A stretch of 64,000 nucleotides of DNA. Source: Cymodocea nodosa (Eukaryota > Streptophyta > Magnoliopsida > Alismatales > Cymodoceaceae). The stretch lies in NCBI GenBank assembly GCA_036874045.1, contig CM072335.1, positions 7,956,001-8,020,000 of the forward strand, read 5' to 3'. Of the stretch, positions 25,085 through 57,355 are shown one piece after another; within the stretch, counting starts at the first letter, position 1, and each line of letters begins with the position of its first letter. Under the pieces are notes generated by a model that was given only the letters and a program-made list of their open reading frames with translations, did no database searches and was not told the DNA's origin. The translations under genes were made by a program, and so were the position numbers.

Positions 25085-25824
25085 AGCAAAACCTTTAGGC
25101 ATTATTCTCCTTGTTAATTCTACTTTAATGCACTCTATTTGTCTTTTTAATTTATAAACTTATAATATGTTATCAATGCTAAATATGGGAGTATTACCAT
25201 TAATGAAATGAAATGTAGAAAGAGATCCTCTCATCAACCATGATGATATAGATGTTTCTATTTCTACATATATTTTAATATATTCATCTTCCCATTTCCA
25301 TTCTTTTAGGTCATTCACTATCCATATTTGAATCAAGTCATCCCACCATCATACTAAATATCAAGTAGGATTATCGGATTCATTATACCATATTCGTAGT
25401 TGAATTTTATTATATTCTGCAGATGGTGGTTCAATTATAACTTGAGGTAAAGGTAATATTTCTATACATTCATCATAATTGTCTATGCTCACTATGTATA
25501 AATTAGATTTAAGTGTAACTAATATATCAGTGACTAGATATATATATCCATCAAATATCACATGTATATTGTTAACTAGTGTTTTCTCTCCTAGATATAC
25601 CATAATATTTTCATTCCAAGATTTATTCTTAAAATTATAAACACTTAAACACAATCCTTCATCCTAATTTTCAGTTGGTCCCTAATAAAATAATTTTTTA
25701 GGAATCGTTGAATTTCTATCAAAAAATATTAAGGTTGCCTCACAATTTTCAGTTGGTACTTTAAATATATTAGATATTCCTATATTTCATTCTTCTTTAG
25801 TGATATGATTTCTAACAAAAATAT
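25085..25824 (-). pseudogene. F-box-like gene relic, minus-strand family-A copy
   Basis: The minus strand matches the C-terminal two thirds of the intact F-box protein at 49705-50796. Examples: LSVYNFKNKSWNENIMVYLG against LSVYNFLNRSWNENIIIYLG, DGYIYLVTDI, NLYIVSIDNYDE, and NKIQLRIWYNESDNPT. Several stops follow (for example at about 25361). The F-box domain itself is lost: similarity ends near codon ~115 at the 25.83-kb junction with an LTR. The terminal stop of the intact copy corresponds to TGG here, so the C-terminus differs. Confidence 0.85.
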
Positions 25825-25848
25825 CACGTGTTTTCCATGTGCGTTCGG

Positions 25849-35797: not shown

Positions 35798-36211
35798 CTT
35801 TTACTGATTTAGGTTCTGGTAGATTAGAAATTACTTCTATTTTAATTTTATCTACTTCGAACCCTTTCTTTGAAATAGCCTGTCCCAAGACTATTCCTTG
35901 TTTAACCATGAAGTGACATTTTTCCCAATTTAGAACCAGATTTTTTTCCACAGAACGTTTTAATACTTGGTCTAAATTGTTTAAACACACTTCTTGTGAA
36001 GTTTCATATACAGTAAAATCATCCATAAATATTTCTAAAAAAACTTCAGTCATTCTAGTGAATATGCTCTGCATACACCTTTGAAAGGTAGTTGGAGCAT
36101 TACATAATCTGAATGACATCCTCTTAAAAGCATAAGTTCCATTAGGACATGTGAAAGTTGTTTTCTCTTGATCTTCTAATGCTACTAGAACTTGGTTATA
36201 TCCTGAAATAG
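35798..36211 (-). pseudogene. family-A reverse-transcriptase fragment, antisense
   Basis: The minus frame 36119-35798 is open and encodes [26 protein letters not shown] (RT catalytic FMDD), [15 protein letters not shown] and [11 protein letters not shown]. It is nearly collinear with 42.16-42.47 kb of the young element. Upstream blocks (SGYNQ-like) continue to 36211 in the same orientation. Both ends are abrupt: LTR C on the left, a sense F-box fragment on the right. Confidence 0.9.
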
Positions 36212-36578
36212 TTGAACCACCATCTGTAGAACATGATAAAATTCAATTAGGAATGTGGTACAATGAATATGATGGTCCTACATTATGTTTAGTAAGATGG
36301 TGGGATGAACTAATGAAATTTCAAATATAGATTATAAAAGACCTAAATGAATGGAAGTGTGAAGAGGAATATATTGAACTATATGTAGAAATAGAAACAA
36401 CTACGTTATCGTGGAATAGAAAAGGATCTCTTTCTGCATTTCAATTCATTAATAGTAATACGCTTGTATTTAGCATTGATAACATATTGCAAGTTTACAA
36501 GTTAAAAAGGAAAGCAAACTGCATTAAAACAGAATTAATAGCAAGGAGAATGATGTTTAAAAGTTTTTGCTTGGACTG
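36212..36578 (+). pseudogene. F-box-like gene 3' fragment, older plus-strand family-A copy
   Basis: The plus frame matches the last ~120 codons of the 49705-50796 protein (NKIQLGMWYNEYD, LCLxRWWDELMKFQI, EEYIELYVEIETT, WNRKGSLSAFQFINSNT). The N-terminal two thirds, including the F-box, are missing because the sequence switches at about 36211 to antisense RT. It belongs to the older element that the young element entered. Confidence 0.85.
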
Positions 36579-37784: not shown

Positions 37785-37789
37785 AGTAT

Positions 37790-39624
37790 TGTTTAGAATG
37801 AAAAAGTGCATATTATTAATGGTTAAATGATGGTTAATTGCATAATATTTAGCTTATCATATGAGAATTAAGCCATTATGTTATAATTGCACTGTTATAT
37901 GCTTTAATTGAAGAATTAATGTTAATTTAGTACATTTATGAACTGTCGGTAAATTGCAGGCTGTGAAATTCTTAAGTATCCAAAAATGCATCTGAGCATC
38001 AGATAGTTATACCTGTAACTCTCCGGAATGTTATTTTATGTTTAAACTACTGCTGACACGTGTTGAGAGCTGGTAGATTTACTTATATTATAACTCGTTA
38101 AGTTAGTATAACTACATGCGTTGAGTTACATGAAAATACACTAAGGCAACGCGTTAGGTTAGCGTTATAAACTTAAGTTGTTATTTTTGCACGTGTTTTA
38201 TAGTTAATTCAATGAAGGAAGTCCGTTGAGTTATCTGTAACTCCACGGACTATATATTTTCTAATATGCCACTATAGCGGTTGTAGGAACAGACAGTTGG
38301 AAGGAAAAACCACGTTTGCACGTATCACGTAGGAATTCAATCGCGTAGGGAGAAAGAAATCATCGCCGTTGATCTGAAGGAAAAAAATCCAATCGACCAT
38401 TCAAGCAGAAGCAGTTACCACTGAAGAAATATAAAAGAAAAGAAGAAAAAAAAGAAAGGGTGTGATCGATGGACGACCAATGTATACAGAGGAGGAGCAC
38501 CGAACTTTCTGTAGACAGTATCGGCAATTCTCCGAAGTATCACACCAACCATCGTATCACCACCATAATCACCAATCATCGGAGGTCTGTGAGGATACTT
38601 GCCTGATGTCGGGTCGATTCCGAGCAAAACACAGTGCCTGACAACCACTGTGAGGAGTGATCGTGTCGCGGGAAGGGAAGACATTTTCACCAAGCACCGA
38701 CTCATATTTCAGGAGATCGTAAAGCTTTTAGCCTTGGCTTTGGGTTGATGCCTGTATGCTGAAGAGGAGATCATCTTGCAATTCTGGACTCGCGATTCTA
38801 TAGGGAGAGGAGACAGAATTGTAAGTGGTTCAATTTTTAGTGGTGTAATCGCGTTGCAAGTAGTGTCGGAAGTATTTACTATCAAGTGAAATTACTTTAC
38901 ATTTCACCTTTCGCCCATCACATCAAAACAAAAATACCAAAAACAATTTATCTTTGTTTGTATGTTGTATTTGAGTGTTGTATTATTGGTGTTGTATCGT
39001 GATTAATGTTATCTGTATCAATTTTATGATTGTCTTATGTTAGTTTTAATTTTACAGTTTACTGAAATTGGTTCGTACAAAACAACTTAAAGATTTTAAT
39101 GGTTACTGTTTGAATCATCTAAATGTTAGTATTGCATAATGATAAATCCAATGTCAATTAGTATTAAAAAGTTTAATTGATGTTATTTACAATCTGTAGA
39201 ATCGCCCAATGGTTGGCCGAATACCTCTGTAATTAGCAGTATTATAAAGAAGGGACAGGCTCGTGGAGTTAACTTAAGTCCACGAGGATAGTCTGTTGAG
39301 TTATCAATAACTCAACGAACTTAGTCCGTTGAGTTAATTGTAACTCAACGGAGTGCTTATTGAATATAAATTTGAATTGTTCACAATCAAACATTTCTTA
39401 AATTCGTCAGCAATTCCCTGTGAGATCGACCTGTACTTGCACACTGATACAATAGACACTATGCACTTGCAGTTAAAGTACAAATTGGAATTAATATCTA
39501 AATTGTATTAACGGTTGTTTGTTTACTTCTAAAAGAAAGAATAGGCATAAAGATAAATTAACTAAGTAAAAATAGAAGTAACAAATCCAAGTTTTTCTAG
39601 TGTAGTGCTGGGAAAACACGAACA
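37790..39624 (+). repeat. 5' LTR of the young family-A element
   Basis: 1,835 bp, TGTTTAG...CGAACA. TATA-like ATATAAAAG at 38429-38437, in a position conserved in the other family-A LTRs. It contains G-box-like CACGTG-type words, TAACTCTCCGGA/ATAGTT motifs and a TAACTCAACGAA palindrome cluster near 39290-39355. It lacks 19 bp present in the 3' LTR (after 52687). Confidence 0.95.
38429..38437 (+). promoter_or_regulatory. TATA-like element of the family-A LTR
   Basis: ATATAAAAG, also present at the equivalent place in the 3' LTR (about 53230), in the older 3' LTR (about 56228) and as ATATAAAAAG in the sense LTR fragment (about 19755). Conservation between diverged LTRs supports a promoter role. 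No transcript data. Confidence 0.5.
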
Positions 39625-39631: not shown

Positions 39632-39649
39632 TGGCGCCGTTGCCGGGGA
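39632..39649 (+). promoter_or_regulatory. primer-binding site, tRNA-Asp type
   Basis: TGGCGCCGTTGCCGGGGA, beginning seven bases after the 5' LTR. It is complementary to the 3' end expected of plant tRNA-Asp, the primer commonly inferred for Athila-type elements. All 18 positions look intact. Confidence 0.9.
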
Positions 39650-39729
39650 ATTGAATTGAACTGAATTGAATTGAATTGAATAGATATAAGCAACTGTTAG
39701 AGCTGTTTCATTTTAATAGTTAGAGTTGT

Positions 39730-42700
39730 GTGTTTTCTTCTGTAATTGAGAATATGGCATATGCTTATGCTCAAAGATTTCTGAAACCTTTAATTAGCAT
39801 ATGTGAATTCTGTAATTTTGAAGGACATGACAATTCTGATTGTTTGAAATTGAGACATTTACAGATTGATAGAACCCATGAACAACAAATGAATTATTCT
39901 CAATTTAATAGAGCCGAGTATGAGAATCCTATAGTTTACCCAACTGATGGTCAGTATAGAATGTGTAATATGATGAGAGACACTGAACTTTGGGATAGCT
40001 ATGACAGACTGGAGCATAGTATAGAGCAAAATCTAGACAAACTGGAATACTTTGTGTGTCAACAACAAGAAGTCAACCAATTAAACTATAAGGAGGCATA
40101 TTCATAACCTAAACAGGATATAATTTACGAAACTTAAAAAGCCATAAAGGAAATTGATCAAAAATTGAATGCAATGAAATTAGATAATCTGGAAACAAAA
40201 TTAAAAGCATTAGATAAAAATGCAATGAAAATACAAGTTTTACAATAGGACAATGAAAATTATAATGTTATAAACCTGCACAACTTGTAAAATATACAAC
40301 AAACAGAAAACACAAATGTAAGAGAATTTAAAGAATGCACTTTAAAACTAAAAACAATTGAAGATCATAATCACGAAAATGATATACAAAAACATCATGA
40401 AAGTAACGAAAATCTAGAAGATGTATGTGTAACATTAAGATTTGGAACTGATATACCACCAAGAACTCAAAATGAAAATGATATGAAGGTAGACAAGAGT
40501 AAAAATCAAAATGATAATGAAAATGTAATAGCTGAAAATCTAGAAATCACTGAAGAACAATCTGAATCTGCAATTGAAGCTAAAAATTATCAAACAAATC
40601 AACTGAAAGAAAAAGAGTCTTTGAAATCAAAATCTTTAGCACCCTATCCTGAAGGATTACAACAAACAATTCTTGAAAAACAAGAAAAAAAAAGAGAAAT
40701 TTTTGAAAAAGTACAAGTTAACATTCCTTTGTTAGATCTATTGCAGAATATGCCACCTTGTGTTAAATTTCTGAAGGATTGATGTACTAAGAAAACAGAG
40801 CGAAAAGTTCTTAGAAAGGTCTTTTTAGCTGAGCAAAGTAGTTACCTATTTCTGCCAGAAATTCCTAAAAAGTTATCTGATCTTGGAATCCCTGTTATAT
40901 CATGCACCATAGGAAATACCATTCTAAAAAGAACCTTAATAGACTTAGGTGCAGGTATAAATGTTATGCCAAGTGATATATTTGCATCCTTAGGATTAGA
41001 AGGCTTAACTCCTACTAGTACAATTATTCAATTGGCTGATAGAAGTATAAGATACCCTAGAAGAAAAAAAGAGGATGTCTTAATTAAAATCAAGAATTTT
41101 ATATATCCTATTGATATTGTAATTCTGGATTCCCAACAAATTAAGCATAAAAATAGTGATACATCTTTAATTTTGGGAAGGCCATTTTTAGCAACATCAG
41201 GGGTTGTTATAAATTGTAAAACTGGAGTAATGAAGTTAGCATATGGTAATGAGGATACTCAATTAAATATTTTCAAACCAGAAAGGTTTGAGGAGTTAGA
41301 AATGCCCTTACATACCATAGACTTTTTAGAGGATGAAGGAGATATGTTAGATGATGTGATTTAAGAAGAATTAAATAGGCAAATCAATTTTGAAACTTTA
41401 GAAGAAAGTGAAAGCATAAATATAGAAGGAGATCAGGAAGAAATTAATTTAAAAAATGATGTTCAATTAGGAGCTCTAGCTTCTGATAGGCAGCATTTAG
41501 AATTAAAACATTTACCTTCTAAATTAACCTATATATTTCTGGAAGATAAACGGACCTGTCCAATCATTATTGCTTTAGATTTGAAAGAGGATCAAATAGC
41601 TAAATTAAAAGAGATAATAAAAAGTTATAAAGAAGCAATAAGATGGACTATGACTGATATAAAAGGGTTAAGTTCAACTTTATGCTGTCACCACATATAT
41701 TTAGAAGAGAATGCTAAACCTGTTAGAATTCCTGAGAGGAGATTAAATCCAAACCTTAAGGAAGTAGTCAGGAAGGAAATAGTTAAATGGTTAGATAATG
41801 ATATAATATATTCGATTTTTGATAGCTCGTGGGTTAGTCCAATCCATGTAGTTCCCAAGAAATCAGGATTAACAGTTATTAGCAATGAAAGTCAAGACTT
41901 GATACCTACTAGAATTCAATCAGGCTGGAGAGTATGTATAGACTATAGAAAGCTGAATGCTGTGACTAGGAAAGATCATTTTCCCTTACCTTTTATAGAT
42001 CAAATGCTGGAAAGATTAGCAGGGCAAGAATATTTTTGTTTCCTAGACGGGTATTCAGGGTATAATCAAATTCCAGTAGCATTAGAGGATCAAGAGAAAA
42101 TAACTTTAACCTGTCTTAATGGAACTTATGCTTTTAAAAGAATGCCATTCGGATTATGCAATGCACCAGCTACCTTTCAAAGGTGTGTGTAGGGCATATT
42201 TACTAGAATGACTAATGAATTTTTAGAAATATTTATGGATGATTTTACTGTATATGGCAACTCATATGAAGTGTGTTTAAGCAATTTAGACCAAATATTA
42301 AAACGCTGTGTGGAAAAAAATCTGGTTTTAAATTGGGAAAAATGTCACTTCATAGTTAAACAAGGAATAGTCTTAGGGCATGTTGTTTCTAAAAAAGGGT
42401 TGGAAGTAGATAAAGCTAAAATAGAAGTAATTTCTAATCTACCAGAACCTAAATCAGTAAAAGATATTAGATCATTCATAGGACATGCTGGTTTTTATAG
42501 AAGATTTATTAAAGACTTTAGCAAGATAGCTAGACCTTTAACTAATCTATTAAAAGATGTTCCATTTAACTTTGATAAAAATATCAAGGAAGCATTTTTT
42601 AGACTTAAAACTAGCTTAATTTCAACTCCTATAATTCAAGCACCTAATTGGAACCATCCCTTTGAATTAACGTGCGATGCTTCTGATTTTGTTGTAGGAG

Positions 42701-44397
42701 CAGTGTTTGGACAGAAAATAGAAAAATCTCCTAGAGTGATTCTTTATGCAAGCAAAACATTAAATGATGCTCAAGTTAATTACACAACTACTGAAAAAGA
42801 ATTATTAGCTGTTGTGTTTGCTTTAGAAAAGTTTAGATCATATTTGATTGGAGCTAAAGTAATAGTATACACGGATCATTCAGCTCTAAAACATCTAATA
42901 AAGAAAAAAGAAACTAAACCTAGATTGATACAATGGATATTATTATTGCAAGAATTCGATCTAGAAATTAAAGATAAAAAAGGTTGTGAGAATGTAGTAG
43001 CAGATCATTTATCAAGATTAGAAATAGAAAAATCAAATATTGAAATTAAGGATAATTTTCCTAATGAACAATTAATGACCATCAACACAATGCCTTGGTA
43101 TGTAGACATAGTTAATTACTTAGTTACTGGTTTAACACCTAAGGATTGGAATAGATAGGATAAGAAATTGTTTTTCTCAAGAGTAAAATATTACTATTAG
43201 GAAGACCCTTACTTATTTAAGAAATGTCCTGATCTGGTTTTAAGGAGGTGTGTTCCAGAAACTGAATATTCGAGCATATTGTCTTTCTATCATGACTAAG
43301 CTTGTGGAGGACATTTTGGTTCAAGGAAAACTACTGCAAAAATTATGCAATGTGGGTTTTATTGGCCAACACTATTCAAAGATGCTTATAAATATTGCTT
43401 AAGTTGTTTAAGATGTCAACAAATAGGAAGAATATCAAAGAGGAATATGATGACTCTAAATCCTATTGTTGAGGTTGAAATCTTTGATGTGTGGGGAATA
43501 GATTTTATGGGTCGATTTCCTATATCTAATCAATTTAATTACATATTGTTGGAAGTGGATTATGTATCTAAATGGATAGAAGCTATTCCTACAAAAACTA
43601 ACGATAAGAAAGTGGTAATACAATTTATAAGAACAAATATATTTGCCAGATTTGGAATACCTAAAGTTATTATCAGTGATAGAGGAACTCATTTCTGTAA
43701 TAGAATTTTTGAAGTCTTAATGAAGAAATATGGAGTAAACCACAAAATTGCAACATCATATCATCCGCAAACAAGTGGACAAGTAGAAAGTGCAAACAAA
43801 CAAATTAAATTAATCTTGGAAAAAGTAGTAAATCCTACTAGAACAGATTGGGCTATTAGATTGATTGATGCACTTTGGGCTTATAGAACTGCTTATAAAA
43901 CGAGCTTAGGTATGTCACCTTTTAGGCTAGTATATGGAAAAAGTTGTCATTTACCTGCTGAAATAGAACATGAAGCTTATTGGGCATTAAAAACTCTATA
44001 CACTAATTTAAATCAAGCTGTTGAAAATAGGAAAATGCAACTAATTGAATTAGAAGAATTTAGAAATGAAGCTTATTCAAAGATTGTAAGAGAAAAAGAG
44101 AAAATTAAATTTTGGCATGATAGAAAAATTATTCCTAAAAACTTTGAAATAGGACAAGAAGTATATCTTTATCTAGCTAGACTCCATAACCATTCAGGAA
44201 AATTAAGATCTAGATGGGCAGGACCTTACATAGTTCGAAATGCTTATCCTTATGGAGCTATTGAAATTGAAAATCCTAAAAATCAGAATATATTTAAAGT
44301 AAATGGACAAAGACTTAAACCTATTCTGAAAACACCAAAAAGCTCCTTTGGAATTATAGAAGAAATCAGAGTAGAGGATTACTCAAGTTTTACTTAG
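39730..44397 (+). pseudogene. zinc knuckle-PR-RT-RNase H-integrase polyprotein, family A
   Basis: One frame of about 1,555 codons with ~10 in-frame stops (40105, 40135, 40246, 40288, 40780, 41362, 42190, 43156, 43198, 43297) and no frameshift. Domains: CCHC knuckle (CEFCNFEGHDNSDC, residues 25-38 from the Met at 39730; the Met at 39754 is an alternative start); acidic Asn/Glu-rich linker; VNIPLLDLLQNMP; protease with DLGA (TLIDLGAGINVMP), QLADRS and LILGRPFLAT; RT (VCIDYRKLNAVT, FLDGYSGYNQIP, MPFGLCNAPATF, catalytic FMDD in [11 protein letters not shown]); RNase H ([24 protein letters not shown]); integrase with a CLSCLRC finger, [14 protein letters not shown] and [11 protein letters not shown] (Asp, Asp, Glu) and a C-terminal chromatin-side region. 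It would copy and integrate the element if intact. It starts only ~80-105 nt after the primer site, leaving no room for a capsid gene. Confidence 0.93.
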
Positions 44398-44986
44398 TAG
44401 GAAATCAGTTTTTATGTTTATATATATATATATAAAACATTAAAAATATATATAACATAAAAATAGTTGCAGTTAAATCGATTGGATCCATCGGTATGGC
44501 TAGAAAATTAAAAAATATTTAGGTCTGACCGAAGCGTAGCATCGGTATGGCCGGAAAATTAAAAAAAATATTGGTTTTACCGAAGCATAGTATCAGTTCA
44601 ACCGAAAGAAAGATAAAAAAATAAAAAAATATTTAGGTCTGACCGAAGCATAGTATCGGTTAAACCTTTAAAAAAATAGAAAAACTATTCTCTGTAATAT
44701 TTTTATTATTATATTTGCTTGTACGGGGAGTCCATTGAGTTTCGCTTAACTCAACGAGCTTACTCCGTTAAGTCTTGAGTTAGTCAACGAGCTTATTTCG
44801 TTGAGTTACCTGTAACACAACAGAGTACTGTAGCTAAGACCGCGGATAAAATAGTAATAGTTGGTTCAGGAAATGACCCGATTACTCCCCTAAACTTAGT
44901 GCTTATTTAAACTAAAACCTAGGGTTTTGGGGGCATTATCTGACAAATCATTTAGAATCTAGAACAGTAGAAATCAAAGCGATTTC
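44398..44986 (+). other. spacer between integrase and env-like ORF
   Basis: Non-coding. TATATA run at about 44420-44440; a tandem array of ~51-63-bp units with ATCGGT and ACCGAAGC words (44489-44668); then a TAACTCAACGAGC...TCGTTGAGTTA palindrome cluster (44733-44825). Confidence 0.7.
44489..44668 (+). repeat. ACCGAAGC/ATCGGT tandem array
   Basis: Units start at about 44489, 44541, 44592 and 44655. Each begins ATCGGT or ATCAGT and ends ACCGAAGCATAGT, separated by A-rich tracts. Confidence 0.8.
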
Positions 44987-47194
44987 GTGCTGTTGTGTAA
45001 CTCCATGATGATGAAGATGACGCCTGAATTCTGGGAAGACATTGTTGATACATCAGAATTTTTGAAGGAATCGGAAGAATGGCAGACGCGGCAGAAGATC
45101 AGAAATACGACAAAAGAGAAAGAGCTACAGAAGGTAGAATTAGAACTTTTCAAGTTGAGAAGAGATTTAGTAGATATGGATATACGAATACCTCAAATGA
45201 TGGAAACACGAATCAGAATAGCAATAGAAATAGTAGTAAGTAAAGAAAGAGAAATAAGGCCAAGTAACGAAGTTGCCCTAGAATTAATCCAGCGTAAGCC
45301 CTGACTCTGGTTCTAAAGACGAATCTGTAGACAAGCTAAATGGGTGATCTGGGAGCAAGAAAGGAAAGCAAATGAAGAGGCAACTAAATAACGGGAGGAA
45401 CCAACTGCTGAAAGACCTGTTCCTGAGGAGTAGTAGTCTAGACCTTCAGTTCCACCATTTAAGTCATTGACACGAGCAGAAATGATGGGGCCTTCGACAG
45501 AAGAAGAAATAAGAGAATTTGCAGAACTGGTTCAAGTTGGAAAAAACCAACAAGAATCAGAAGATTTGGTTGTGGCTAAAGCACACCTAATGTTTGATGC
45601 ACTGTACAAAAAGAGGGCTACAGAAAAGTTGAAAGCCCAATATAAAATCAAAGTGGAACAACATCACGCAGCTACTGCCAGAACTGTTGCCAAACCTACT
45701 GCAAAAGAAAATGAAGCTGGTCCTTCGAGACTAGTAATTATAGGAAAAGTTAAACAGGAAGAGCCAGTACCTGTGGCTCGAAGGCCTGCAGAGCCTACTT
45801 TTGTAGATTTAATTTCAGAAGATGAAGAGGAAGAACATGCATAACTAATTAGAAAAAAGAAAGGAAAAGAAAAAGTGCCTGAATTTGAGGAAATTAAATC
45901 TGAAGTACCAATTTTTACAGGGCTTGTGGAGCAGATTTTTATTAACCTGCTATCCGATTCTGAGGAGGAGCAAAGAAAAGAAAAAAATCAGGCTGAAATT
46001 AGTCTACACCCTGTACAAGAAGAAATAGAAATTAGGGCAGAAACTGAATTGCCCGTGACTCCATCCTAATTTGTTACAGAATTAGAAAGAACAGTAACAA
46101 AACAGATTGGTAGTCAGGAGGAAGAAGAAAGAGTAGAAAATGTAGAGGCTGAAAGAAGCCATTTGGACAAAAATAAATTCACAAATTCCACTGAAGAGCA
46201 AGAAACTCTTTAGCAAATTATGGAAAGAATTCAAGATAGAGTGGAGAGTTCTCTCGGCTCACCACCACAGACAGAATCAAAAGTAAAAATTCAGGAATCT
46301 GATGAGAATGTCCAAATGCAGCCTATGATGGAGGAAGAGCAAGAGCAAACCCCTCTGGAGCAACAAAGTCACCTTCCTGACCCGACTGAAACAACAATTT
46401 TGAATGAAGTACATTTTTGTAGTCAGGAAGCTTATATCAAATACCAAGAAATAAGGGGTTACGATATTATTTACAGTAGACTAGTAAATTGGGATGGAAT
46501 GCAAGAAATCAATGATCTATTTGAATTCCAAGGTCTACTGCAATTTATATCTCAAGATAGAGGGCATGCAGTATATGAGAATTTAGTGCCCTATTTTTAT
46601 GCAAATTTAAGAGAAGGAGAAGGAGAATTAATTTCAAACGTGGAGGAAGCTAATGTACAGATAACACCAGAGCTTCTCCACAACATATTTGGTTTAAAGA
46701 ATGAAGGAACAAAAATTTTGGAGGATACAACTGTAGTTGAATGGACTGAGTAGCAAATTAAGGATTGTTTAGCTATCAATCCTGGTGTGCCATTATTAAA
46801 AAGATTGAAGCATTTAAATGGTAAAGTACACATGGTAGCTAACATTCTAATTAAGAATGTCTATCAACGACAGGGCCATGACATAGAATTAAGTCAATTT
46901 GTCAAATGGGCCACGTATGCAGTTGTAAATAAAATTCAAATAAATTGGTCTGCAGTTTTTGTCTCCAAGCTGAAAACAGTAAAGAAGAAATTATTTTATG
47001 GAGATTTGATTCCACTGCTGATGGTGGATAGTATTGATTTCACTAAATGGACATCAAAAAGGATAAGATCTAGAACTATTTCAGTGAAAGAATACAGAAA
47101 TTTTGTAGTTGCAGAATTAGCTGTACCTTCTAGAGAAATTGTAGGAGCTGTAGAGAGGATTAATCAATTAGAACATCAATTAGAAAAACTCTAG
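44987..47194 (+). pseudogene. Athila-type downstream (env-like) ORF, family A
   Basis: One continuous frame of ~736 codons with about ten stops (45302, 45314, 45389, 45431, 45434, 45842, 46067, 46211, 46751, 47192). The N-terminal half is charged and Glu-rich, probably coiled coil. The C-terminal half has LFEFQGLL, LVPYFYANL, VQITPELLHNIFGL and HMVANILIKNVYQRQGHD. That pattern resembles the 'putative plant transposon protein' domain found 3' of pol in Athila-type elements (from memory, not searched). No signal peptide or membrane segment is evident, so 'env-like' refers to position only. Homologous relic at 30.0-34.2 kb. Preceded by a palindrome-rich spacer. Confidence 0.6.
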
Positions 47195-47903
47195 AAGGAA
47201 GTAGATGAACTTAGGCATAGAGATTAAATTGTATTATTCGTCTACTTGTGTAAAATTGTATGAAATTGTATGATGTACTTGTATTGTAATTGATTCATAT
47301 TAATGAATGTGAATTTTTCAGATGCAATTTTCATACGTGTTTTGAATGTGAAATGAATGAAAATTATTGAATATTATGTTATTGTGAAACTTTATGAATG
47401 AATTTGTAACAGATTTACAATTTGCTGATTGACAGGATAACTGCTTAAAAATTTCTGCATGTTATAAGGTAAAATGCAAATTCTGCATAACATAAAATGA
47501 CCTGCAATTTAAATCTTTATATAATGTTCAGATTTAAATATATTTTAATCAAGATGCATAGAGATTTATTACAGTTAGCAGAATGACAAAGAAAAATAAA
47601 AAAAAACAGAATAGAAAACTTACAAGAGTGAAACTTAGAAGTTGCTAAGTGTTAACTCAACGAAGTAAGTCCGTTGAGTTAGCCGTAACTCCACGAGGTC
47701 AGTAATATAATATAAGGTCACTCCGTTGAGTTATCTGTAACTCAACGAAGTTAGTCCGTGGAGTTAGCAACAGTAACCGACTATGTTTTGTTGAGTAATC
47801 TGTAACTCAACGAGGTTAGTTCGTGGATTAAGCAGAATGGTTATTCTTTTAACCACAAACGAAACTTCGTCGATTTAGCGGTTACCAAAATCTGAAATTA
47901 GTA
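47195..47903 (+). other. spacer between env-like ORF and gag
   Basis: AT-rich non-coding DNA ending in the densest cluster of TAACTCAACGAA/TCCGTTGAGTTA palindromes in the window (about 47650-47830, at least six copies in alternating orientation). Confidence 0.7.
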
Positions 47904-48197
47904 GTGGTACATGTACCCATTAAAATAGGAACTACGATGCACGTTGCAAGACACGTTCTTGCAACGAGATTTATTCACTTTATGGATGCGCAGTATATAT
48001 ATGAAATAGAATGTTATTTACGAGTTACCAGCACTTTTAAGAGAAAGGAGAAAGCGTTGGAGGAATTGGAAGGAGAAGCAGCAGATTCAACCTTCATTCG
48101 ACAACAAATATTTATAGAATGGAAAGCTTCAGACTGGTATGTAATTAATCTTCTGTTATTTATTTATGAGCGCATGGACTCGTTCTCTAAGCACTAA
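47904..48197 (+). CDS. unknown 97-codon ORF upstream of gag
   Basis: No recognised domain. The start (TTMHVARHVLATRF...) is basic and hydrophobic, and the middle (about residues 47-60) is charged (KRKEKALEELEGEAAD). It overlaps the gag frame start by 32 nt in another frame. A GTATGT near 48137 could be a splice donor joining its first ~78 codons elsewhere. It may be a gag leader exon or chance. Confidence 0.3.
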   Translation: MVHVPIKIGTTMHVARHVLATRFIHFMDAQYIYEIECYLRVTSTFKRKEKALEELEGEAADSTFIRQQIFIEWKASDWYVINLLLFIYERMDSFSKH

Positions 48198-49509
48198 ACG
48201 ATTAGTAAGAACACCTATCCAGGAATTTTCATTGCAGAGGGGTATTGAAAAATTTTCTGAACTGAACTTTAACGAAATTCTTTGGGGTGTAGCTAACTTT
48301 TCTTTGAAAGAGAACGTAGAGATGACTGCTCCAGTAGAAAAACCATTAGAAGAGATTTTGTATCCTGAATTAATTGATGAACCTTCATGTATTCGATTGC
48401 CAAACTTTGAGGGAGATAGGTTTGAACCGAAATCTAATTATATTAGTCAATTGCCACATTTTCATGGATTAGAAAGAGAGGATGCCTATTATTTCCTTAC
48501 AGAATTTAACGAAGTTTGTCAAATGATGAGAATGCCGAACATGAGTATAGATGCTATTAAACTTAGATATATTCCTTTTGCTTAAAAAGATACAGCTAAG
48601 AGATGGTTATATACTTTGTCGCTTGATTCAATTTCTACATGGACTGAATTTTGCTCTATTTTTCTGGAAAAATACTATCTAACACATCAAACAATTAAAA
48701 AGAAGAAAGAAATATTAATGTGTAGCCAAAAACAGGGTGAATCATTTTGAAAATATTTTGAAAGATTTAAAGATTTACTGACTCAATGTCCACATCATGC
48801 AATGAGTAAAGCACAATGAATAGGCATAATTTATGAAGGCATAGATGTTTCAACGAAATCTTAATTAGAATCTACTTGTCAAAATGGATTTTTAAAATTA
48901 TGTTGTGAAGAAGTACGGGCATATTTAGAAAATTTTGCAAAAAGAAGTACACAGTGGGAAAATTCAGCTGAAGCTATTGCAAATAAAAGATTATTGCCAA
49001 GAGGAATGCATGAAATAGATTCCAATACTATGCTTGAGGTGAAATTAAATGAATTAACAAAGAAAATAGAAGAGTTATCATTAAATCAAAAGCTAGCAGA
49101 AAAGAATACAAACATAAATGACTTAGATATTATTTATGTTAGAAACCAGAGAGATAACTTGGGAAATTATTATAATCCTAATTGGAGAAATCACCCGAAT
49201 TTATCTTGGAGAAACAACAATTTCCAAGGAGGAGAAAATATAAATGAGAAGAACATAAGTTATGAAGTATTAATTGAACAAGGAGCTAGAATAGAGAAAT
49301 TATAAAAGATAATCCAACAAGTAAACAATCGTCCAGAATTTATATTTGGAAATGCTGTAAATCAAAATCAGAATAGAAATATACCACTTAGACAGAAGGA
49401 ACCAATGGAAGTTAGACCTACTGGAGGATTGCCAATACAAGCTATACCTAATCCTGTCAATAGAACGGTTAATGAAATTGATACCTCTTCAAGGAGGGTA
49501 ACTGAATGA
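48166..49509 (+). pseudogene. retrotransposon gag (capsid region), located 3' of pol
   Basis: One frame, ~448 codons, six stops (48583, 48748, 48817, 48862, 49303, 49507). It matches the Athila/Ty3 gag capsid pattern: LPHFHGLEREDAYYFLTEF, then AIKLRYIPFA, AKRWLYTL, SISTWTEFCSIFLEKYY, YFERFKDLLTQCPHH, IYEGID, and the tail NYYNPNWRNHPNLSW. It would form the virus-like particle. The zinc knuckle normally fused to it is instead at the start of the pol frame at 39.8 kb, so gag is split across the element. Same strand as pol, no LTR or target duplication between them. Confidence 0.85.
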
Positions 49510-49704
49510 AGCAGCATATTTGAAGCAACTATCTGTATGTATATATGTTTTTATTTTTATTTTAAGTTAATAGTATCGTAGAGTTAATTTTTAACTCAAC
49601 GAACTTAGTCCGTTGAGTTATGCCTTAACTCCATGAGGGTGTGCAGTAGTTATGTTAATTTTTGTCTCTGCTAAATTTTTGTTTTTATTTTACAGAATCG
49701 ACAA
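49510..49704 (+). promoter_or_regulatory. gag/F-box spacer with palindrome and splice-acceptor-like end
   Basis: Contains AACTCAACGAACTTAGTCCG followed by TTGAGTTA (about 49583-49620), then a T-rich run ending TTTTATTTTACAG at 49695, nine bases before the F-box ATG. The last part fits a plant 3' splice site, so the F-box ORF could be reached by splicing from an LTR-driven transcript. Inferred only. Confidence 0.45.
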
Positions 49705-50796
49705 ATGAAATTAATGCAATTACCATTGGATGCACAAAGGGAAATACTAAGTAACTTGTCAGCTAAAGATCTGTGCAAGATGTGTTGTGTATCAAAGGAA
49801 ATTAAAGACTATATCGAAGAAAAATATTTTCAGGGACTACAAGCTGCAAAAATGACTAAGTTCAGAGATGGATTCATATGGAGGTCATTTAATCGTAGTT
49901 CAAATACCCATGAAAATCTGGCTATGGAAGAAACTATTGGAATTCCAACTAATGCATTAGAAGGAATGAGTCATATTATGGGGATAGATGAAGGATTAAT
50001 CATATACAAGACAAGACCAAGGTATGCAAGTTTATCATTACCTGAAATTTTGATAAGAAATCGTATAACTGGAGAAGAATGTAATATAGGAAGACCTAAT
50101 ATATTTGAAGCACCAACTGAAAATTGTGGGTCAGCTTTAATATTTTCTGATCAAAATTCTGCAATTCCTGAAAAATTATATTATTTGAGACCTATAGGAA
50201 ATTTGGGTGGAGATTTACGCTTAAGTGTGTATAATTTTCTAAACAGATCTTGGAATGAAAACATTATAATATATCTAGGACAGAAATCATTAATTAACCA
50301 AACACATCTCATACTTGATGGTTATATTTATTTAGTCACGGAGATATCAATAGCATATAGATCTGATTTATACATAGTGAGCATAGACATTTATGATGAT
50401 TATACAGAAATTTTACATGTACTGAGTGAAATAGCTAAACCACCATTTGAAAAATTTAATAAAATTCAAATAGGAATGTGGTATAATGAAGAAGATGATC
50501 CTACTTTATGTCTGATAAGATGGTGGGATGAACTCATGAAATTTCAAATATGGATTATGGAAGACATGAATGAATGGAAGTGGGATGAGGAATATATTAA
50601 AATAGATGTAGAAATAGAAACTTCTACATTACCTTGGAACCAAAAAGGATCCCTTTCTGCATTACATATCATTAATGGTAATACACTCGTATTTGGAATT
50701 TATAATATATTGCATGTTTACAAATTAAAAAGGACCAAGAACTGCATTAAAACAGAATTAATAGTAAGAAGAACTATGCCTAAAAAGTTTGCTTGA
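49705..50796 (+). CDS. intact F-box protein carried by the family-A retrotransposon
   Basis: 363 codons, uninterrupted. Residues 6-37 (LPLDAQREILSNLS, then KDLCKMCCVSKEIKDYI) are a good F-box: LPxD, EILSxL, the L-C-VSK core. F-box domains bind SKP1 in SCF ubiquitin ligases. The rest (about 85-345) has repeated aromatic/hydrophobic strands (LRLSVYNFLNRSWNENII, HLILDGYIYLVTE, DLYIVSIDIYDDYTEI, IWIMEDMNEWKWDEEY) like a plant F-box-associated or kelch-type substrate-binding region. The subtype is not certain. It lies between gag and the 3' non-coding region of the element, with a splice-acceptor-like ACAG nine bases before the ATG. Relics exist in two older family copies (25085-25824 minus, 36212-36578 plus). 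It is the only long ORF of the element without stops. Origin from a host F-box gene is inferred. Confidence 0.85.
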   Translation: MKLMQLPLDAQREILSNLSAKDLCKMCCVSKEIKDYIEEKYFQGLQAAKMTKFRDGFIWRSFNRSSNTHENLAMEETIGIPTNALEGMSHIMGIDEGLIIYKTRPRYASLSLPEILIRNRITGEECNIGRPNIFEAPTENCGSALIFSDQNSAIPEKLYYLRPIGNLGGDLRLSVYNFLNRSWNENIIIYLGQKSLINQTHLILDGYIYLVTEISIAYRSDLYIVSIDIYDDYTEILHVLSEIAKPPFEKFNKIQIGMWYNEEDDPTLCLIRWWDELMKFQIWIMEDMNEWKWDEEYIKIDVEIETSTLPWNQKGSLSALHIINGNTLVFGIYNILHVYKLKRTKNCIKTELIVRRTMPKKFA

Positions 50797-52571
50797 ACTG
50801 ATACATTTATTCCATTTGTTTCTACTTTTCAATCATGTTCTTAAGCTGTGATTTTGTGTGTTTAATGTTGTGTATTATGCATTTATTTTTAGAAAAAAAA
50901 ATAAAAATTTTGAAGTTTTTCATGTTCATTTTATAAATAAAAAAAAATAAACAAAACAAAATATCAATCCAGTTTGTTGGTATCTGTTCTGGGAAACCAA
51001 CTAGCTTGCTTTTGAGCCACCAAAGGCATAGAAGCCTGGGTTCCACACAAGACACTGATTTATTAATACCTGTTAAATGTTATTTTGTTTTATATTCTGT
51101 GTTTATCTGGGAATGAAAAATTTTTCAGAATCAAAAATCGGAATATGCAGAAAGAGATACAAATGGAATAAGGTACGTAACCAATTACTTATCCTAAATG
51201 TTAAATCAAACAAAACTTTATTCATGCCTGCTACAATTACTGTACTTATTGTCAAATCTTTTACATTGAATACAATGCAAAATGTAGGTATAGGGGGGAG
51301 GTAATTAAAGTAACAGTCATGTATGTTTGTTAATTAAAGGAATTAAAATGGTACTGCAAAGTTTTGAAGAAATTGAAAATTTTTATGAACTTGCTGTAAC
51401 TATCCGATAATTGAGACTGTAAAATTTTTATAAACTGCTTGAATGTTATATTTAGAAGGCTATAAAAGATGCTATAGAATTTATTATTTATGTAAATCTA
51501 GATATAGTTTAACAGTTTCAGGATTTTAAAATGAAATCAGAATATTTAATGCTTAATCAGAAAATTATCTGAAGTCTTGAAGGAGCTGAGATGTGAATTC
51601 TAGATTAAATGAAACACATATGATGAAAGATACATTTACTTTGAATGATTGAACTTGTAGAATGATTTTTGTGTAGATCTTATTAAACTACAGATAAAGT
51701 ATGAACTTATTGTTATGGATTCATATCTTTAGTAAATGATAGAAGTAGGATTATATAAGATTGGTGTTTTATTGCATCTGTATTAATGAAATACATGCAT
51801 ATACAGTATGTGATTAATGCTTTGTTTTGTGTGTGCATTTATTTTTAGAAGAAAAAAAAAAAAAAACCTTGAGAGTTTATTGACTTGTTTGATCACGAGC
51901 CGTTTGTACCTGAGCAGATAGGTTTGTAAGGATTGTTGACCTTAAAAAGGACTCTGAAAATCTAGCAACCTAAGATCTTGATCAGATCTGGGATTGTTGA
52001 CTGAAAGCTCGTTACATGGGTACATTAGAAAGCTCTTGCATGATTAAGCTTGTCAAATTAACTTTTAAAGTACCCAAAAAAAAAAAACATATACTGTTCT
52101 GAAAAGATACAAGTGTTTTGTGAAATACAGATATCTTATGAATCGAGTATATTTTTTGTTATCTAGAATTGCTGAAATATGAATCTGGAATTGACTTTTG
52201 AAGTTGTTTAATGGAAATACAATTCCTTATTCTACTTGTCTTAATCAGATTGAATTGGATTGTACTTTAATTTGTATGTTGTTGAAATTTCTTTTGGAAA
52301 AACTTATTGGAAAATTCAGGATTACAGATGATGAAAAGAAGAACAAACGATAATATAATTAACACCTATATGAAGATGATATTCTTTGTATGTAATTTAC
52401 ATATATTCTAAATATCTTTGCAGGTTGATTACTGAAATATACAGAATATATGTTTATGCTAAACAGAAAAAAAAAACAAAAGGGGAAGAATTAATTCTAG
52501 CACTTTTTGAAAGACCAATTAATTAGATCTTAGTTTGCTAAGGGACTAGCAAAATTTAGGTATGGTGGAAG
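50797..52571 (+). other. 3' non-coding internal region of the young element
   Basis: 1.77 kb, no convincing ORF. Landmarks shared with the older copies: CTAGCTTGCTTTTGAGCCACC near 51000; ACATTG...CAATG and a GTATAGGGGGGAGG tract (51262-51301) resembling the one 3' of pol in element B; GGCAACCTAAGATC-like wording near 51965; and a purine stretch (TAGGTATGGTGGAAG, 52557-52571) abutting the 3' LTR, which is the likely polypurine tract. Confidence 0.7.
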
Positions 52572-54425
52572 TGTTTAGAATGAAAAAGTGCATATTATTA
52601 ACGGTTAAATGATGGTTAATTGCATAATATTTAGCTTATCATATGAGAATTAAGCCATTATGTTATAATTGCACTGTTATATGCTTTAATTGAAGAATCT
52701 ACTTAATTTTGGGGAATTAATGTTAATTTAGTACATTTATGAACTGTCGGTAAATTGCAGGCTGTGAAATTCTTAAGTATCCGAAAATACATCTGAGTAT
52801 CGGATAGTTATACCTGTAACTCTCCGAAATGTTATTTTATGTTTAAACTGCTGCTGACACGTGTTGAGAGCTGGTAGATTTACTTACATTATAACTAGTT
52901 AAGTTAGTATAACTGCACGCGTTGAGTTACATGAAAATACACTAAGGCAACGCGTTAGGTTAGTGTTATAAACTTAAGTTGTTATTTTTGCACGTGTTTT
53001 ATAGTTAATTCAATGAAGGAAGTCCGTTGAGTTATCTGTAACTCCACGGACTATATATTTTCTAATATGCCACTGTAGCGGTTGTAGGAACAGACAGTTG
53101 GAAGGAAAAACCACGTTTGCACGTATCACACAGGAATTCAATCACGTAGGGAGAAAGAAATCATCGCCTTTGATCTGAAGGAAGGAAATCCAACCGACCA
53201 TTCAAGCAGAAGCAGTTACCACTGAAGAAATATAAAAGAAAAGAAGAAAAAAAAGAAAGGGTGTGATCGATGGACAGCTAGTGTATACAGAGGAGGAGCA
53301 CCGAGTTTTCTGTAGACAGTATCGGCGATTCTCCGAAGTATCACACCAACCATCGTATCACCACCATAATCACCAATCATCGGAGGTCTGTGAGGATACT
53401 TGCCTGATGTCGGGTCGATTTCGAGCCAAATACAGTGCTTGACAACCACTGCGAGGAGTGATCGCGTCACGGGAAGGGAAGACATTTTCACCAGGCGCCG
53501 ACTCATATTTCAGGAGATCGTAAAGCTTTTTGCCTTGGCTTCGGGTTGATGCCTATATGCTGAAGAGGAGATCATCTTGCAATTCTGGACTCGCAATTCT
53601 ACAGGGAGAGGAGACAGAATTGTAAGTGGTTCAATTTTTAGTGGTGTAATCGCGTTGCAAGTAGTGTCGGAAGTATTTACTGTCAAGTGAAATTACTTTA
53701 CATTTCACCTTTCACCCATCACATCAAAACAAAAATACCAAAAACAATTTATCTTTGTTTGTATGTTGTATTTGAGTGTTGTATTGTTGGTGTTGTATCG
53801 TGATTAATGTTATCTGTATCAATTTTATGATTATTTTATGTTAGTTTTAATTTTACAGTTTTCTTAAATTGGTTCGTACAAAACAACTTAAAGATTTTAA
53901 TGGTTATTGTTTGAATCATCTGAATGTTAGTATTGCATAATGATAAATCCAATGTTAACTAGCATTAAAAAGCTTAATTGATGTTATTTACAATCTGTGG
54001 AATCACCCAATGGTTGGCCAAATTCCTCTGTAATTAGCAGTATTATAAAGAAGAGACAGACTCGTGGAGTTAACTTAAGTCCACGAGGATAGTCCGTTGA
54101 GTTATCCATAACTCAACGAACTTAGTTCGTTGAGTTAACTGTAACTCAACGGAGTGCTTATTGAATATAAATTTGAATTGTTCACTATCAAACATTTCTT
54201 AAATTCGTCAGCAATTCCCTGTGGGATCGACCTCTACTTGCACACTGATACAATAGACACTATGCACTTGCAGTTAAAGTACAAATTGAAATTAATATCT
54301 AAATTGTATTCAAGGTTGTTTGTTTACTTCTAAAAGAAAGAATAGGCATAAAGATAAATTAACTAAGTAAAAATAGAAGTAACAAATACAAGTTTTTCTA
54401 GTGTAGTGCTGGGAAAACACGAACA
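52572..54425 (+). repeat. 3' LTR of the young family-A element
   Basis: 1,854 bp, TGTTTAG...CGAACA, followed by target duplication AGTAT. It pairs with 37790-39624. The ORF at 53216-53506 (-) and its 5'-LTR twin at 38415-38705 are antisense ORFs of the LTR and share no known domain. Confidence 0.95.
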
Positions 54426-54430
54426 AGTAT

Positions 54431-55142
54431 GTACAGATTGTTGACCTGAAAAAAGGCTCTTTAAATTTGGCAACCTAAGATCTTGATTAGATTTGGAATT
54501 GTTGATTGAAAGTTCAATACATGGGTACACTATAAAACTCTTGTATGATTCAAACCTTTCAAATTAACTTTTAAAGTAAAAATATGCATATACTATTTTG
54601 AAAAGATAAAATTGTTTTGTGAAGATACAAATATCTTTTGAATCGAGTATATTCTATATTATTTATGATTACTGAAGTATGAATCTAGAATTAGACTTTT
54701 GAAGTTGTTTGTTTGAAATACAATTCATTATTCTTCTTGTGTTAATCATATTGAGTTGAATTGTGTTTTGGTTCGTATGTAGTTGAAATTTATTTTAAAA
54801 ATCATATTGGGAAATTTAGGATAACAAATGTTTGAAAAGAAAAAAATTGATAATATAACTACCACTTATGTGATGTTAATATATTTTGTATATAATTTAC
54901 ATATGTTTTAAATATATTTATAGGTTAGAGAGGAAAAAATAATGTTGAATTAAATTACTAAAAAATACTAAATATCTTTATATTAATCTAATTTTAGTAT
55001 TTTGAAGATATAAAATGAAGAAATTTTTTCATAAGGAATACTGATTTATGAAGAAAGAAATAGCTCTAACACTTTAAAATGACCAACTAGTTAGATCTTA
55101 GTAGTTTGCTAAGGGACTAGTAAAAGTTACGTATGGGAGAAG
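54431..55142 (+). mobile_element. 3' non-coding internal region of the older family-A element, right part
   Basis: Continues the sequence broken off at 37784 (GTACAGATTGTTGACC, TTGGCAACCTAAGATC) and ends GGGACTAGTAAAAGTTACGTATGGGAGAAG before the older LTR, the family's usual polypurine-side wording. Confidence 0.8.
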
Positions 55143-57355
55143 TGTTTAGAATGAAAAAGTGCATAATATTAACAGTTAAATAATGGTTAATTACATTATA
55201 TTTTGCTTATCATATGAGAATTAAGTCATTATGTTATAATTGCACTATTATATGCTTTAATGAAAGAATCTATATAATTTCAAGGAATTAGTGTTAATTA
55301 AGTATATTTTTGCACTATCGGTGAGTTACAGGCTTTGTAATTCTTAAGTATTCGAATTGTATATTATTTCAGAGAATTACATTTCATGTACCGGATAGTT
55401 ATGTTTTAAACGCTTAAAAGAATACTTTATTATTTCCTGGAGTACAAGTGTTGTAAACTTAATTTATGACTTAAGTGAATTTTTGGTAAGTTAGATGATA
55501 ACTATTTGAAATATGTCTAAGCATCAGATAGTTAGGTTTGCAAGTATCCAAAATACCTTTTTATCATAAAACTTACTAAGGACATGTGTCATGATATGAA
55601 AACCTGATTTAAGTGTGGTTTTATAGTATTAAGCATGATCTATTTTATTTGCACATATTTATATCATATGCAAATGCATAGTAACAACTCATTGAGTTAG
55701 TGTTATTTTTGTTGAAAGATCACTTGCCAACTCATTGAGTTACAAGTTTAAAGGTATAAAAAGATCATGTGAGAACTCGTTGAGTTAGCGAGTAAAAATT
55801 GTAAGTTGTATATTTGAACTCGTTAAGTTAGAATTATGCACGTGTTGAAATTAAATACTTTATTGTATCACGTGAGGTACACATGTTTAACTCGTTCAGT
55901 TAGCATAACTATACACGTTGAGTTACTTAAATATATACTAAGGTAACGCATTGTGTTAGTGTTATAAGCTTATAAGTTATTTCTTTATTGCACATATTTT
56001 ATAGTTAAGTCAACGAAGTAAGTCCGTTGAGTTACACTAACTACACGGACCATTTATTTTCTAATATACCACTATAGCAATTATAGAAACAAGAAATTCA
56101 AAGAAAAATCACGATTGCATGTATCATGTAGGAATTAACTCGTGGAATGAAGAAGAAATCACCATCGTTGATATGAATGAAGGAAATCCAACTGATCATT
56201 TAAGTAGAAGTAGTTACTACTAAAAGAAATATAAAAGAAGAGGAGAAAGATGAAGAAAAGGTGTGTGTGTGTGTGAAGGTGGAGGACCATGCTAACTGCA
56301 GGAAGCGTCGGAAGTTTACTGAAGCTCCACAACACCACCAAAAATCACCAACCAACCATCAAAAGTCTGTGAAGATACTTTCTAGATGTCGGGTCGATTC
56401 TGAACCAAACACGGTGACTGACAACCACTGTGAGAAGTGATCACTTCGTAAGAAGGAAAACCATTTTCACTAAGTACCGACTCATATCTCAAAAGATCAT
56501 AAAGCTTTTAGTCTTAGTTTCGGGTTAATGCTAATATACTGAAGAGGAGATCAACTTATAAGTCTTGGTTTGCAATTCTATAGGAAGAGGAGGCAAGACT
56601 ATAAGTGGTTAAGTTTTCTGTGGTGTAATCGCATCGCATGTAGTGACAGAAGTTCTTATTGTCGATAGAGATTTTTACATTTCACCTTTCGCTCATCTTT
56701 AGAAACATATCAAAACAAAAATACCAAAAATAACTAATTATCTATGCTTATATTTAGTATTAATGTGTTGTATTATTTGTTTTGTATCGTGATTAATGTT
56801 ATCATTGTCAGCATTGTGAATGTTTTATGTTTGTTTGATTCAGAAAATAGAAAATAGTTTTATTGTTTACTGAAATTGATTCATACAAAAAACTAAATAT
56901 CTTAATGGTTACTGTTCGAAATATCTGAATGTTAGTGTTGATTAATGATAAATCTTAGATTAACTAATATTAAAAAGTTTAATTGATGTTATTTATATTC
57001 TATGTAACCACCCAATGGATGAACGAATTACTCTGTGAATAATAATATTTAACTAAAAAGGTAGACTCATGGAGTTAACTTAAATTCATGATGTTAGTCC
57101 GTTGAGTTAGCTATAACTCCACGAACTAGGTCCATTAAGTTAATAGTAACTCAACGAAGTGTTTAATTGAATACATATAAACTTTGGCATAAAAATTAAA
57201 ATAGTATATAATTCTTACTTAATCTTTGTGGAATCAACCTATACTTGCACACAAATACAATATACACTATACACTTGCAATTAAAAATATAAATTAAACT
57301 TAATATCTAATTTGTGTGAAAAGTTATTTGTTACTTTAAAAATTTTTATTAATAT
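55143..57355 (+). repeat. 3' LTR of the older family-A element
   Basis: Starts TGTTTAGAATG. Aligns along its length with the young LTRs but is much more diverged, with extra blocks (about 55360-55560). TATA-like ATATAAAAG near 56228; palindrome cluster at 57095-57160. The right end is unclear (57.34-57.36 kb) because the terminal ~80 bp do not match. Confidence 0.8.

What the first reader, a model, noticed from the sequence alone, without database searches (positions are those of the whole stretch)
49705..50796. LTR retrotransposon family that carries its own F-box protein gene
The only intact long ORF of the young gypsy element is a 363-residue F-box protein with a clear LPxD...CVSK F-box and a propeller-like C-terminal region. 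Remnants of the same gene lie at the same place, next to the 3' non-coding region, in two older, independently inserted copies (25085-25824 and 36212-36578). The gene was therefore in the family before these insertions. SCF adaptors direct ubiquitination of chosen targets. Plant polerovirus P0 proteins use an F-box to remove ARGONAUTE, so an element-encoded F-box might act on host silencing factors or on element proteins. That role is speculation; the gene's presence in the family is seen directly.
Basis: partly seen in the sequence, partly recalled or inferred. Interest (0 to 1): 0.88.

Follow-up and report, generated by a model that had tools for sequence, protein, structure and literature searches.

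The report
Plant retrotransposon carrying an F-box gene
A very abundant plant jumping gene carries its own F-box protein, the kind of part that tells a cell which proteins to destroy, and keeps its coat-protein gene behind its enzyme genes, the reverse of the usual order; this gives a concrete candidate for how such an element could act on its host.

Summary
The 363-aa ORF is an F-box protein (PF00646, E=6e-9) inside an LTR element with a 5-bp target duplication. It is no private capture: the genome search scored 112 near-full-length copies, 90-93% identical apart from the query itself; diverged subfamilies (67-76%, one 53% copy) and a second family (33%) carry it too. Of 20 copies chosen by Gag, 19 have it. 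Between subfamilies dN/dS is 0.40-0.65 (neutral simulation 1.02); within the recent burst 0.80, i.e. decay. My first within-burst value (0.5) was an ascertainment artefact.

The whole gag ORF sits inside a predicted intron whose donor follows a conserved TATA box and whose acceptor is 9 nt before the F-box ATG. I propose that unspliced RNA makes Gag and spliced RNA makes the F-box protein, an SCF substrate receptor. Targets, SKP1 binding and expression are unshown. My searches found no paper on F-box-bearing or pol-before-gag plant LTR elements.

The parts
37785..37789 (.). target-site duplication AGTAT, left
37790..39624 (+). 5' LTR (TG..CA), about 95% identical to the 3' LTR
39632..39649 (+). 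primer binding site TGGCGCCGTTGCCGGGGA
   Evidence: that this is a tRNA-Asp type is recalled
39724..40104 (+). short ORF with zinc knuckle (read by eye), about 75 bp after the PBS; no capsid here
40783..44397 (+). protease (by position and eye), RT, RNase H, integrase in one frame; five in-frame stops inside this span in this copy
44748..44807 (.). inverted-repeat motif cluster also found in the LTR
45482..45844 (+). small ORF o45, unknown
46220..47194 (+). ORF o46a/o46b (a stop between them in this copy), weakly like PF20167 (putative plant transposon protein, below cut-off)
47654..47824 (.). inverted-repeat motif cluster ahead of gag
47994..48002 (+). TATA-box-like TATATATAT, present in all ten aligned copies; TATAAATA at this place in two older subfamily copies
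48137..49695 (+). predicted intron: donor CTG|GTATGTAAT, acceptor TTTTACAG|AATC; contains the whole gag ORF
48166..49509 (+). gag (capsid) ORF downstream of pol, with in-frame stops in this copy
   Evidence: PF03732 E=4.5e-19 in a sister copy
49593..49619 (.). inverted-repeat motif ahead of the F-box gene
49705..50796 (+). F-box protein ORF, 363 aa, intact
52564..52571 (+). short purine-rich tract next to the 3' LTR (GGTGGAAG here, GGGGGAAG in most sister copies)
52572..54425 (+). 3' LTR
54426..54430 (.). target-site duplication AGTAT, right
36205..36570 (+). F-box remnant (aa 242-363) of the older copy into which the young element is nested; its 3' part continues at about 54431-57358
25085..25825 (-). 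F-box remnant (aa 114-363) of a third copy

Best explanation
This is a standing gene of an Athila-like LTR retrotransposon lineage with a pol-before-gag layout. SHOWN by sequence: the F-box gene is a regular component of a high-copy family, is older than the split of its subfamilies, is also present in a second family, has evolved between subfamilies under purifying selection, and sits beside a gag gene that lies downstream of pol. INFERRED from sequence: gag and the F-box form a 3' expression unit; a TATA box ahead of gag starts a transcript whose unspliced form gives Gag and whose spliced form, which removes gag as an intron, gives the F-box protein. INFERRED from family knowledge: the protein joins the host SKP1-CUL1 complex through its F-box and uses its C-terminal FBA-like domain to choose a target, which favours element replication by removing a host restriction factor (silencing or capsid-binding protein) or by tuning turnover of element proteins.
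For: 112 copies scored of 6806 candidates; 19 of 20 gag-picked copies have the F-box; in ten F-box-picked copies read in context it always lies between gag (or, in e1, o46b) and the 3' LTR; 29 gag/F-box pairs across the two hit lists (122 and 112 places), all on the same strand, spacing 1378-1545 bp, 0 on opposite strands within 6 kb. Different 5' flanks in 8 of 8. Selection: gag-picked copies against older copies met by chance: dN/dS 0.50 (0.36-0.80), 0.43 (0.33-0.66), 0.40 (0.28-0.54), and 0.65 (0.43-0.98) against the window's minus-strand remnant; neutral simulation 1.02 (0.715-1.53) with 9.6 stops expected and 0 of 400 stop-free at 14% divergence. Gag as yardstick (6 copies): 1.02 within the burst, 0.22-0.48 between subfamilies. 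Second family, one copy read (L059): IN, then F-box at 33% identity, then gag. Signals: 9 of 9 sister copies have TATA and donor, 6 of 9 an acceptor AG; 8 of 8 subfamily-2 copies have an AG there; only 2 acceptor-like sites in 12,944 bp, one 9 nt before the ATG; the second family has one 11 nt before its F-box ATG.
Against: No expression, splicing, SKP1 binding or target data. Within the recent burst dN/dS is 0.80 (0.56-1.09), not different from neutral, and only 6 of 19 gag-picked copies lack a stop, 3 of those 6 with gaps. One of three thresholds for fixed differences was not significant (P=0.57; others 0.018, 0.006). Three of nine copies have lost the acceptor AG. The FBA domain is below the TIGR01640 cut-off in this copy, FBA_1 and FBA_3 are below cut-off where seen; the single-sequence AlphaFold model is useless (pLDDT 35), and no solved structure matched by sequence. 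The acceptor criterion was set after seeing the site. The neutral simulation was made at 3% and 14% divergence only, with a spectrum from F-box-picked copies.
Confidence: 0.66

Rival explanations
1. Passenger: a host F-box gene was captured once and has been copied ever since without function, like other transduced gene fragments.
For: dN/dS within the recent burst is 0.80 with an interval that includes 1, and only 6 of 19 gag-picked copies lack a stop (3 of these 6 with gaps); no expression data.
Against: Between subfamilies dN/dS is 0.40-0.65 using copies not chosen for the F-box. Copies 68-76% identical still have open frames (6 of 8 stop-free, but all were fetched because the matched stretch was listed as stop-free). 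The gene is in a second family at 33% identity with swapped order.
Confidence: 0.15
2. The F-box protein acts inside the element's own economy: it marks Gag or Pol for turnover and limits copy number or sets Gag levels, rather than attacking the host.
For: F-box and gag are neighbours in both families and, in the main family, would share one transcription unit.
Against: The copy number is high (112 scored of 6806 candidates), which does not suggest strict self-limitation. No direct test.
Confidence: 0.2
3. The copies are non-autonomous: a canonical element supplies all proteins, and the pol-gag-F-box order is a frozen rearrangement that is mobilised in trans.
For: Many pol, gag and o45 frames of the copies read have stops; within the burst gag dN/dS is 1.02 and PR, RT-RH and IN give 1.11, 0.97 and 1.21 on 5, 5 and 2 copies.
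Against: Gag dN/dS between subfamilies is 0.22-0.48; gag then F-box is kept in an older subfamily copy.
Confidence: 0.12
4. Host F-box genes that happen to lie in a duplicated, retrotransposon-rich region.
For: Plants have many F-box genes and three copies lie within 26 kb here.
Against: TSD and LTR ends enclose the gene; copies on many contigs; 8 different 5' flanks in 8 copies.
Confidence: 0.01

Closest known systems
Athila-type Ty3/gypsy elements (OTA group)
   Same: Large, long LTRs, PBS of the type I recall for Athila, extra ORFs between integrase and 3' LTR; RT, RNase H and integrase in Ty3/gypsy order.
   Different: Reported order is GAG-PROT-RT-RH-INT (PMC6317226, passages seen); here capsid is a separate ORF after INT. 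That survey removed elements with unexpected domain order as likely mispredictions. 'F-box' does not occur in its main text.
Phalaenopsis Gypsy elements with an AlkB (m6A demethylase) ORF
   Same: A plant Gypsy family that kept an extra host-like ORF through several subfamilies (PMC9289625, passages and section 12 seen).
   Different: RNA demethylase, shown active in vitro; here an F-box protein, untested. Their screen of 121 angiosperm genomes reports 15 extra domains; 'F-box' does not occur in the main text; their supplementary chart was not seen.
Polerovirus P0 silencing suppressor
   Same: A parasite-encoded F-box motif used with plant SKP1 (PMC6593998, start of abstract in the listing).
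   Different: P0 is described there as having an F-box-like motif; this is an F-box plus FBA-like protein. No relation by sequence was tested.
BARE1 spliced Gag RNA (barley)
   Same: Splicing used to separate Gag production from the full transcript (PMC3735527, abstract and outline).
   Different: In BARE splicing favours a Gag-only RNA; here gag would itself be the intron and the spliced form would give the F-box protein. Prediction only.
Plant LTR elements with additional ORFs (Grande, Retand, RIRE2, Bagy2)
   Different: 'F-box' occurs 0 times in that review and 0 times in the Retand paper PMC11963269.
F-box genes that captured a Tc1/mariner HTH domain in nematodes
   Same: Link between F-box genes and transposons (PMC12062965, passages seen).
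   Different: There a host F-box gene takes a transposon domain; here a transposon carries an F-box gene. The passages seen name no plant LTR element with an F-box.

Membership tests
Athila lineage of Ty3/gypsy | Domain order GAG-PROT-RT-RH-INT | tested here: not met
   Capsid lies after INT in 8 of 10 context copies; 1 of 10 (e1) has no capsid match and 1 of 10 (e7) has lost pol; none has a capsid match before its own pol. PF03732 identifies the downstream ORF in one sister copy tested.
Athila lineage of Ty3/gypsy | RT, RNase H, integrase of Ty3/gypsy type | tested here: met
   Pfam RVT_1, RT_RNaseH, rve in gypsy order.
Athila lineage of Ty3/gypsy | Placement in the Athila clade of the RT tree | not tested
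   No named plant reference sequences on hand; the name Athila-like rests on PBS, size and extra ORFs, partly recalled.
LTR retrotransposon | LTR pair, PBS, purine tract, 5-bp TSD, copies at independent sites | tested here: met
F-box protein | F-box domain | tested here: met
   PF00646 35.8 bits against cut-off 20.5.
F-box protein, FBA class | F-box-associated domain over the curated cut-off | tested here: inconclusive
   TIGR01640 23.4 bits against 37.9 in this copy; related matches elsewhere in the genome, such as those cut out as L029 and L030, reach 49.8 and 41.8 bits.
SCF substrate receptor | Binding to SKP1/ASK | not testable with these tools
   Needs a binding assay.

The most novel reading that the evidence does not exclude
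A plant retrotransposon lineage has reorganised itself into an early pol module and a late gag/F-box module with its own promoter, in which gag is the intron of the F-box gene, so that one splicing decision switches between making particles and disarming the host through a self-encoded SCF receptor. It would be a retrotransposon with a virus-like accessory gene and temporal gene programme, and it may have seeded its host genome with thousands of F-box sequences (6806 first-look candidates, of which 112 were scored).
Probability: 0.3. Interest if true: 0.93.

Novelty: new variant of a known kind. Interest (0 to 1): 0.82.

Why it matters
It would be the first LTR retrotransposon family known to me that encodes an F-box protein as a standing gene, and it offers a direct test of whether transposons, like plant viruses, recruit the host ubiquitin system. 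The pol-before-gag order would break the rule used to classify and to filter plant LTR elements, so similar families may have been dropped from surveys as artefacts. The gag-as-intron prediction can be checked with long-read RNA.

Tried and rejected
Within-burst dN/dS as proof of selection: first values 0.52, 0.45 by the codon model and 0.47, and the shared/singleton contrast (P=0.02, 0.047, 0.14 at three thresholds in the 34 copies, 0.28 with subfamily 2 added) came from copies ranked by F-box similarity to the query, many picked because stop-free. With 19 copies picked by gag the value is 0.80 and the contrast is not significant (P=0.28; 0.11 when all 53 are pooled). I withdrew it and rely on between-subfamily comparisons, where copies e6up, e7up and e8up were met by chance beside other copies. 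The subfamily-2 set (8 copies, L030-L036 and L038; L037 was dropped because its match is broken in two) was fetched because one search listed those matches as stop-free.

Donor gene: none found. F-box searches of the large protein collection with one sequence and with a 12-row alignment gave nothing; it may hold few plants. In the own genome 10 of the 145 TIGR01640 matches were cut out and all 10 are relatives of the element gene. One search lists, below the second family (61-85%), one decayed match at 48% (C11:5441907, not looked into) and then the main family at 33-37%; only the best candidates are scored, so this is no proof that a host donor is absent. A PF00646 search scored 150 of 4219 candidates, most in short frames, and was not followed up. 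Viral-contig scans with F-box and integrase: no relative. Rfam: no match. Literature searches for F-box in LTR elements and for gag after pol; no title or abstract start listed describes either, but the library holds open-licence papers only.

Full report
WHAT IS THERE. The ORF at 49705-50796 is open for 363 codons and encodes an F-box protein with a weak F-box-associated domain. It lies inside an LTR retrotransposon at 37790-54425 with TG..CA LTRs, PBS, a short purine-rich tract and the target duplication AGTAT. This young element sits in the 3' non-coding part of an older copy (36205-37789 and about 54431-57358), and a third copy lies on the minus strand (29.3 to 19.9 kb) with an LTR nested at a nearby but different site.

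HOW COMMON. The window is 64 kb of a 374.6-Mb genome. A search with the F-box protein scored 112 matches out of 6806 candidates, all over nearly the whole length: the window copy itself and the rest at 90-93% identity; by my count of the list about 46 of the 112 have no stop. Eight copies whose 5' LTR start was held have eight different 5' flanks, and the first 1000 bp (214 bp in one) of their LTR pairs are 93-96% identical, so this looks like a burst of independent insertions. Of 20 copies picked by their gag, 19 have the F-box at the expected spot.

GENE ORDER. Ten copies picked by F-box were read in context. The order is LTR, PBS, zinc-knuckle ORF, PR, RT, RH, IN, o45, o46a/b, gag capsid, F-box, 3' LTR, with some parts deleted in single copies. 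Pol lies upstream of gag in 8 of 10; one copy (e1) lacks a capsid match and one (e7) has lost pol; none has a capsid match before its own pol. The downstream ORF is Gag: PF03732 E=4.5e-19 in a sister copy. Across hit lists 29 gag/F-box pairs are all on the same strand with gag 1378-1545 bp upstream, and 4 RT/gag pairs all have gag downstream. An older copy of the diverged subfamily keeps gag then F-box (e7up). A second family (L059, one copy read) has integrase, F-box (33% identity), then gag: F-box and downstream gag go together although their order differs.

SELECTION. Copies picked by F-box similarity gave dN/dS about 0.5 within the burst, but this is biased. In 19 copies picked by gag it is 0.80 (0.56-1.09), as expected for copies that decay after insertion; gag itself gives 1.02. 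Between subfamilies, comparing the gag-picked copies with older copies found only as neighbours, dN/dS is 0.50, 0.43 and 0.40, with the eight subfamily-2 copies 0.50, and with the window's minus-strand copy 0.65 (0.43-0.98). Neutral simulation gives 1.02 (0.715-1.53) at 14% divergence; no simulation was run at the 20-30% divergence of the oldest copies. Gag against e6up and e7up gives 0.22-0.48. Fixed differences between subfamilies against singletons: P=0.018 and 0.006 at two thresholds, 0.57 at the strictest. So the F-box gene seems to have been kept as a protein gene, about as well as gag or somewhat less.

EXPRESSION SIGNALS. Nine nt before the F-box ATG lies a T-rich tract with ACAG; by my criterion only 2 such sites occur in 12,944 bp. 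An AG preceded by a T-rich stretch is there in 8 of 8 subfamily-2 copies, six ACAG and two ATAG, and the second family has a site by the same criterion 11 nt before its F-box ATG. Twenty-nine nt before the gag ATG lies CTG|GTATGTAAT, and about 140 bp further up TATATATATG; both are in 9 of 9 sister copies, and two older subfamily copies have TATAAATA and the same donor. The acceptor AG is lost in 3 of 9 copies. Together they would make the gag ORF the intron of an F-box mRNA. The second family has no such donor that I saw ahead of its gag (by eye). A motif of inverted repeats (CTCAACG/CGTTGAG) occurs 20 times in the element (0.6 expected), 11 in the LTRs and 9 in the non-coding gaps behind IN, before gag and before the F-box, never in an ORF; its role is unknown.

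HOW IT MAY WORK. Shown: presence, position, age relative to subfamilies, between-subfamily constraint, gene order. Inferred: internal promoter, splicing switch. By analogy only: SCF receptor function. Plant parasites do use F-box motifs (polerovirus P0 and SKP1, PMC6593998, listing only) and a host F-box protein, FBW2, targets AGO1 (PMC9035678, listing only), so a silencing factor is a sensible first target, with element Gag as the main alternative.

COMPARISON AND NOVELTY. [quoted passage not shown] 'F-box' does not occur in the main texts of the four LTR-element papers I searched. The main survey of plant LTR elements reports GAG-PROT-RT-RH-INT and removed elements with unexpected order (PMC6317226). 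I therefore call it a new variant of a known kind, and do not file it as a canonical Athila element since the defining gene order is not met.

LIMITS. One genome, unnamed; no expression data; no RT tree with named references; counts are lower bounds set by the tool's scoring limit; literature limited to open-licence papers.

Noticed in passing
39309-39335, 44748-44807, 47654-47824, 49593-49619, 54110-54136: An inverted-repeat motif (TAACTCAACG..CGTTGAGTTA) sits in the LTRs and in three non-coding gaps of the element, never in an ORF; 20 core 7-mers against 0.6 expected.
   Followed up: partly
8553-13715: A second, diverged Athila-like element (67% nt) with PBS-like site, protease, RT and integrase but no capsid match between PBS and protease; other gypsy families may share the displaced gag.
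   Followed up: partly
L059 (G000:C7:17062366-17069590): Second, small element family with the order integrase, F-box, gag; about seven matches in the genome including itself, mostly decayed.
   Followed up: partly
46220-47194: The o46a/b ORFs show dN/dS 0.53 and 0.44 within the burst (7 and 11 copies) although copies were not picked for them; they may also be under constraint, or their alignment differs (o46b dS 0.107 is high).
   Followed up: no
whole genome G000: The best TIGR01640 match has only 49.8 bits and the 10 of 145 matches cut out are element relatives; no high-scoring host FBA gene appeared among those scored, which from recall is odd for a flowering plant.
   Followed up: no
33061-33837: A diverged relative (35% aa) of the o46 ORFs on the plus strand, from another element.
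   Followed up: no
35798-36207: An inverted RT fragment (89% to 42054-42463) abuts the older copy's F-box remnant: local rearrangement.
   Followed up: no
5385-6011 and 14633-15022 (minus): Remnants of other retroelement polyproteins: SH3_retrovirus E=2e-22 and Pol_BBD E=5e-13.
   Followed up: no
60300-60563: Tandem repeat of about 81 bp spacing, three copies, two at 83-85% to the first.
   Followed up: no
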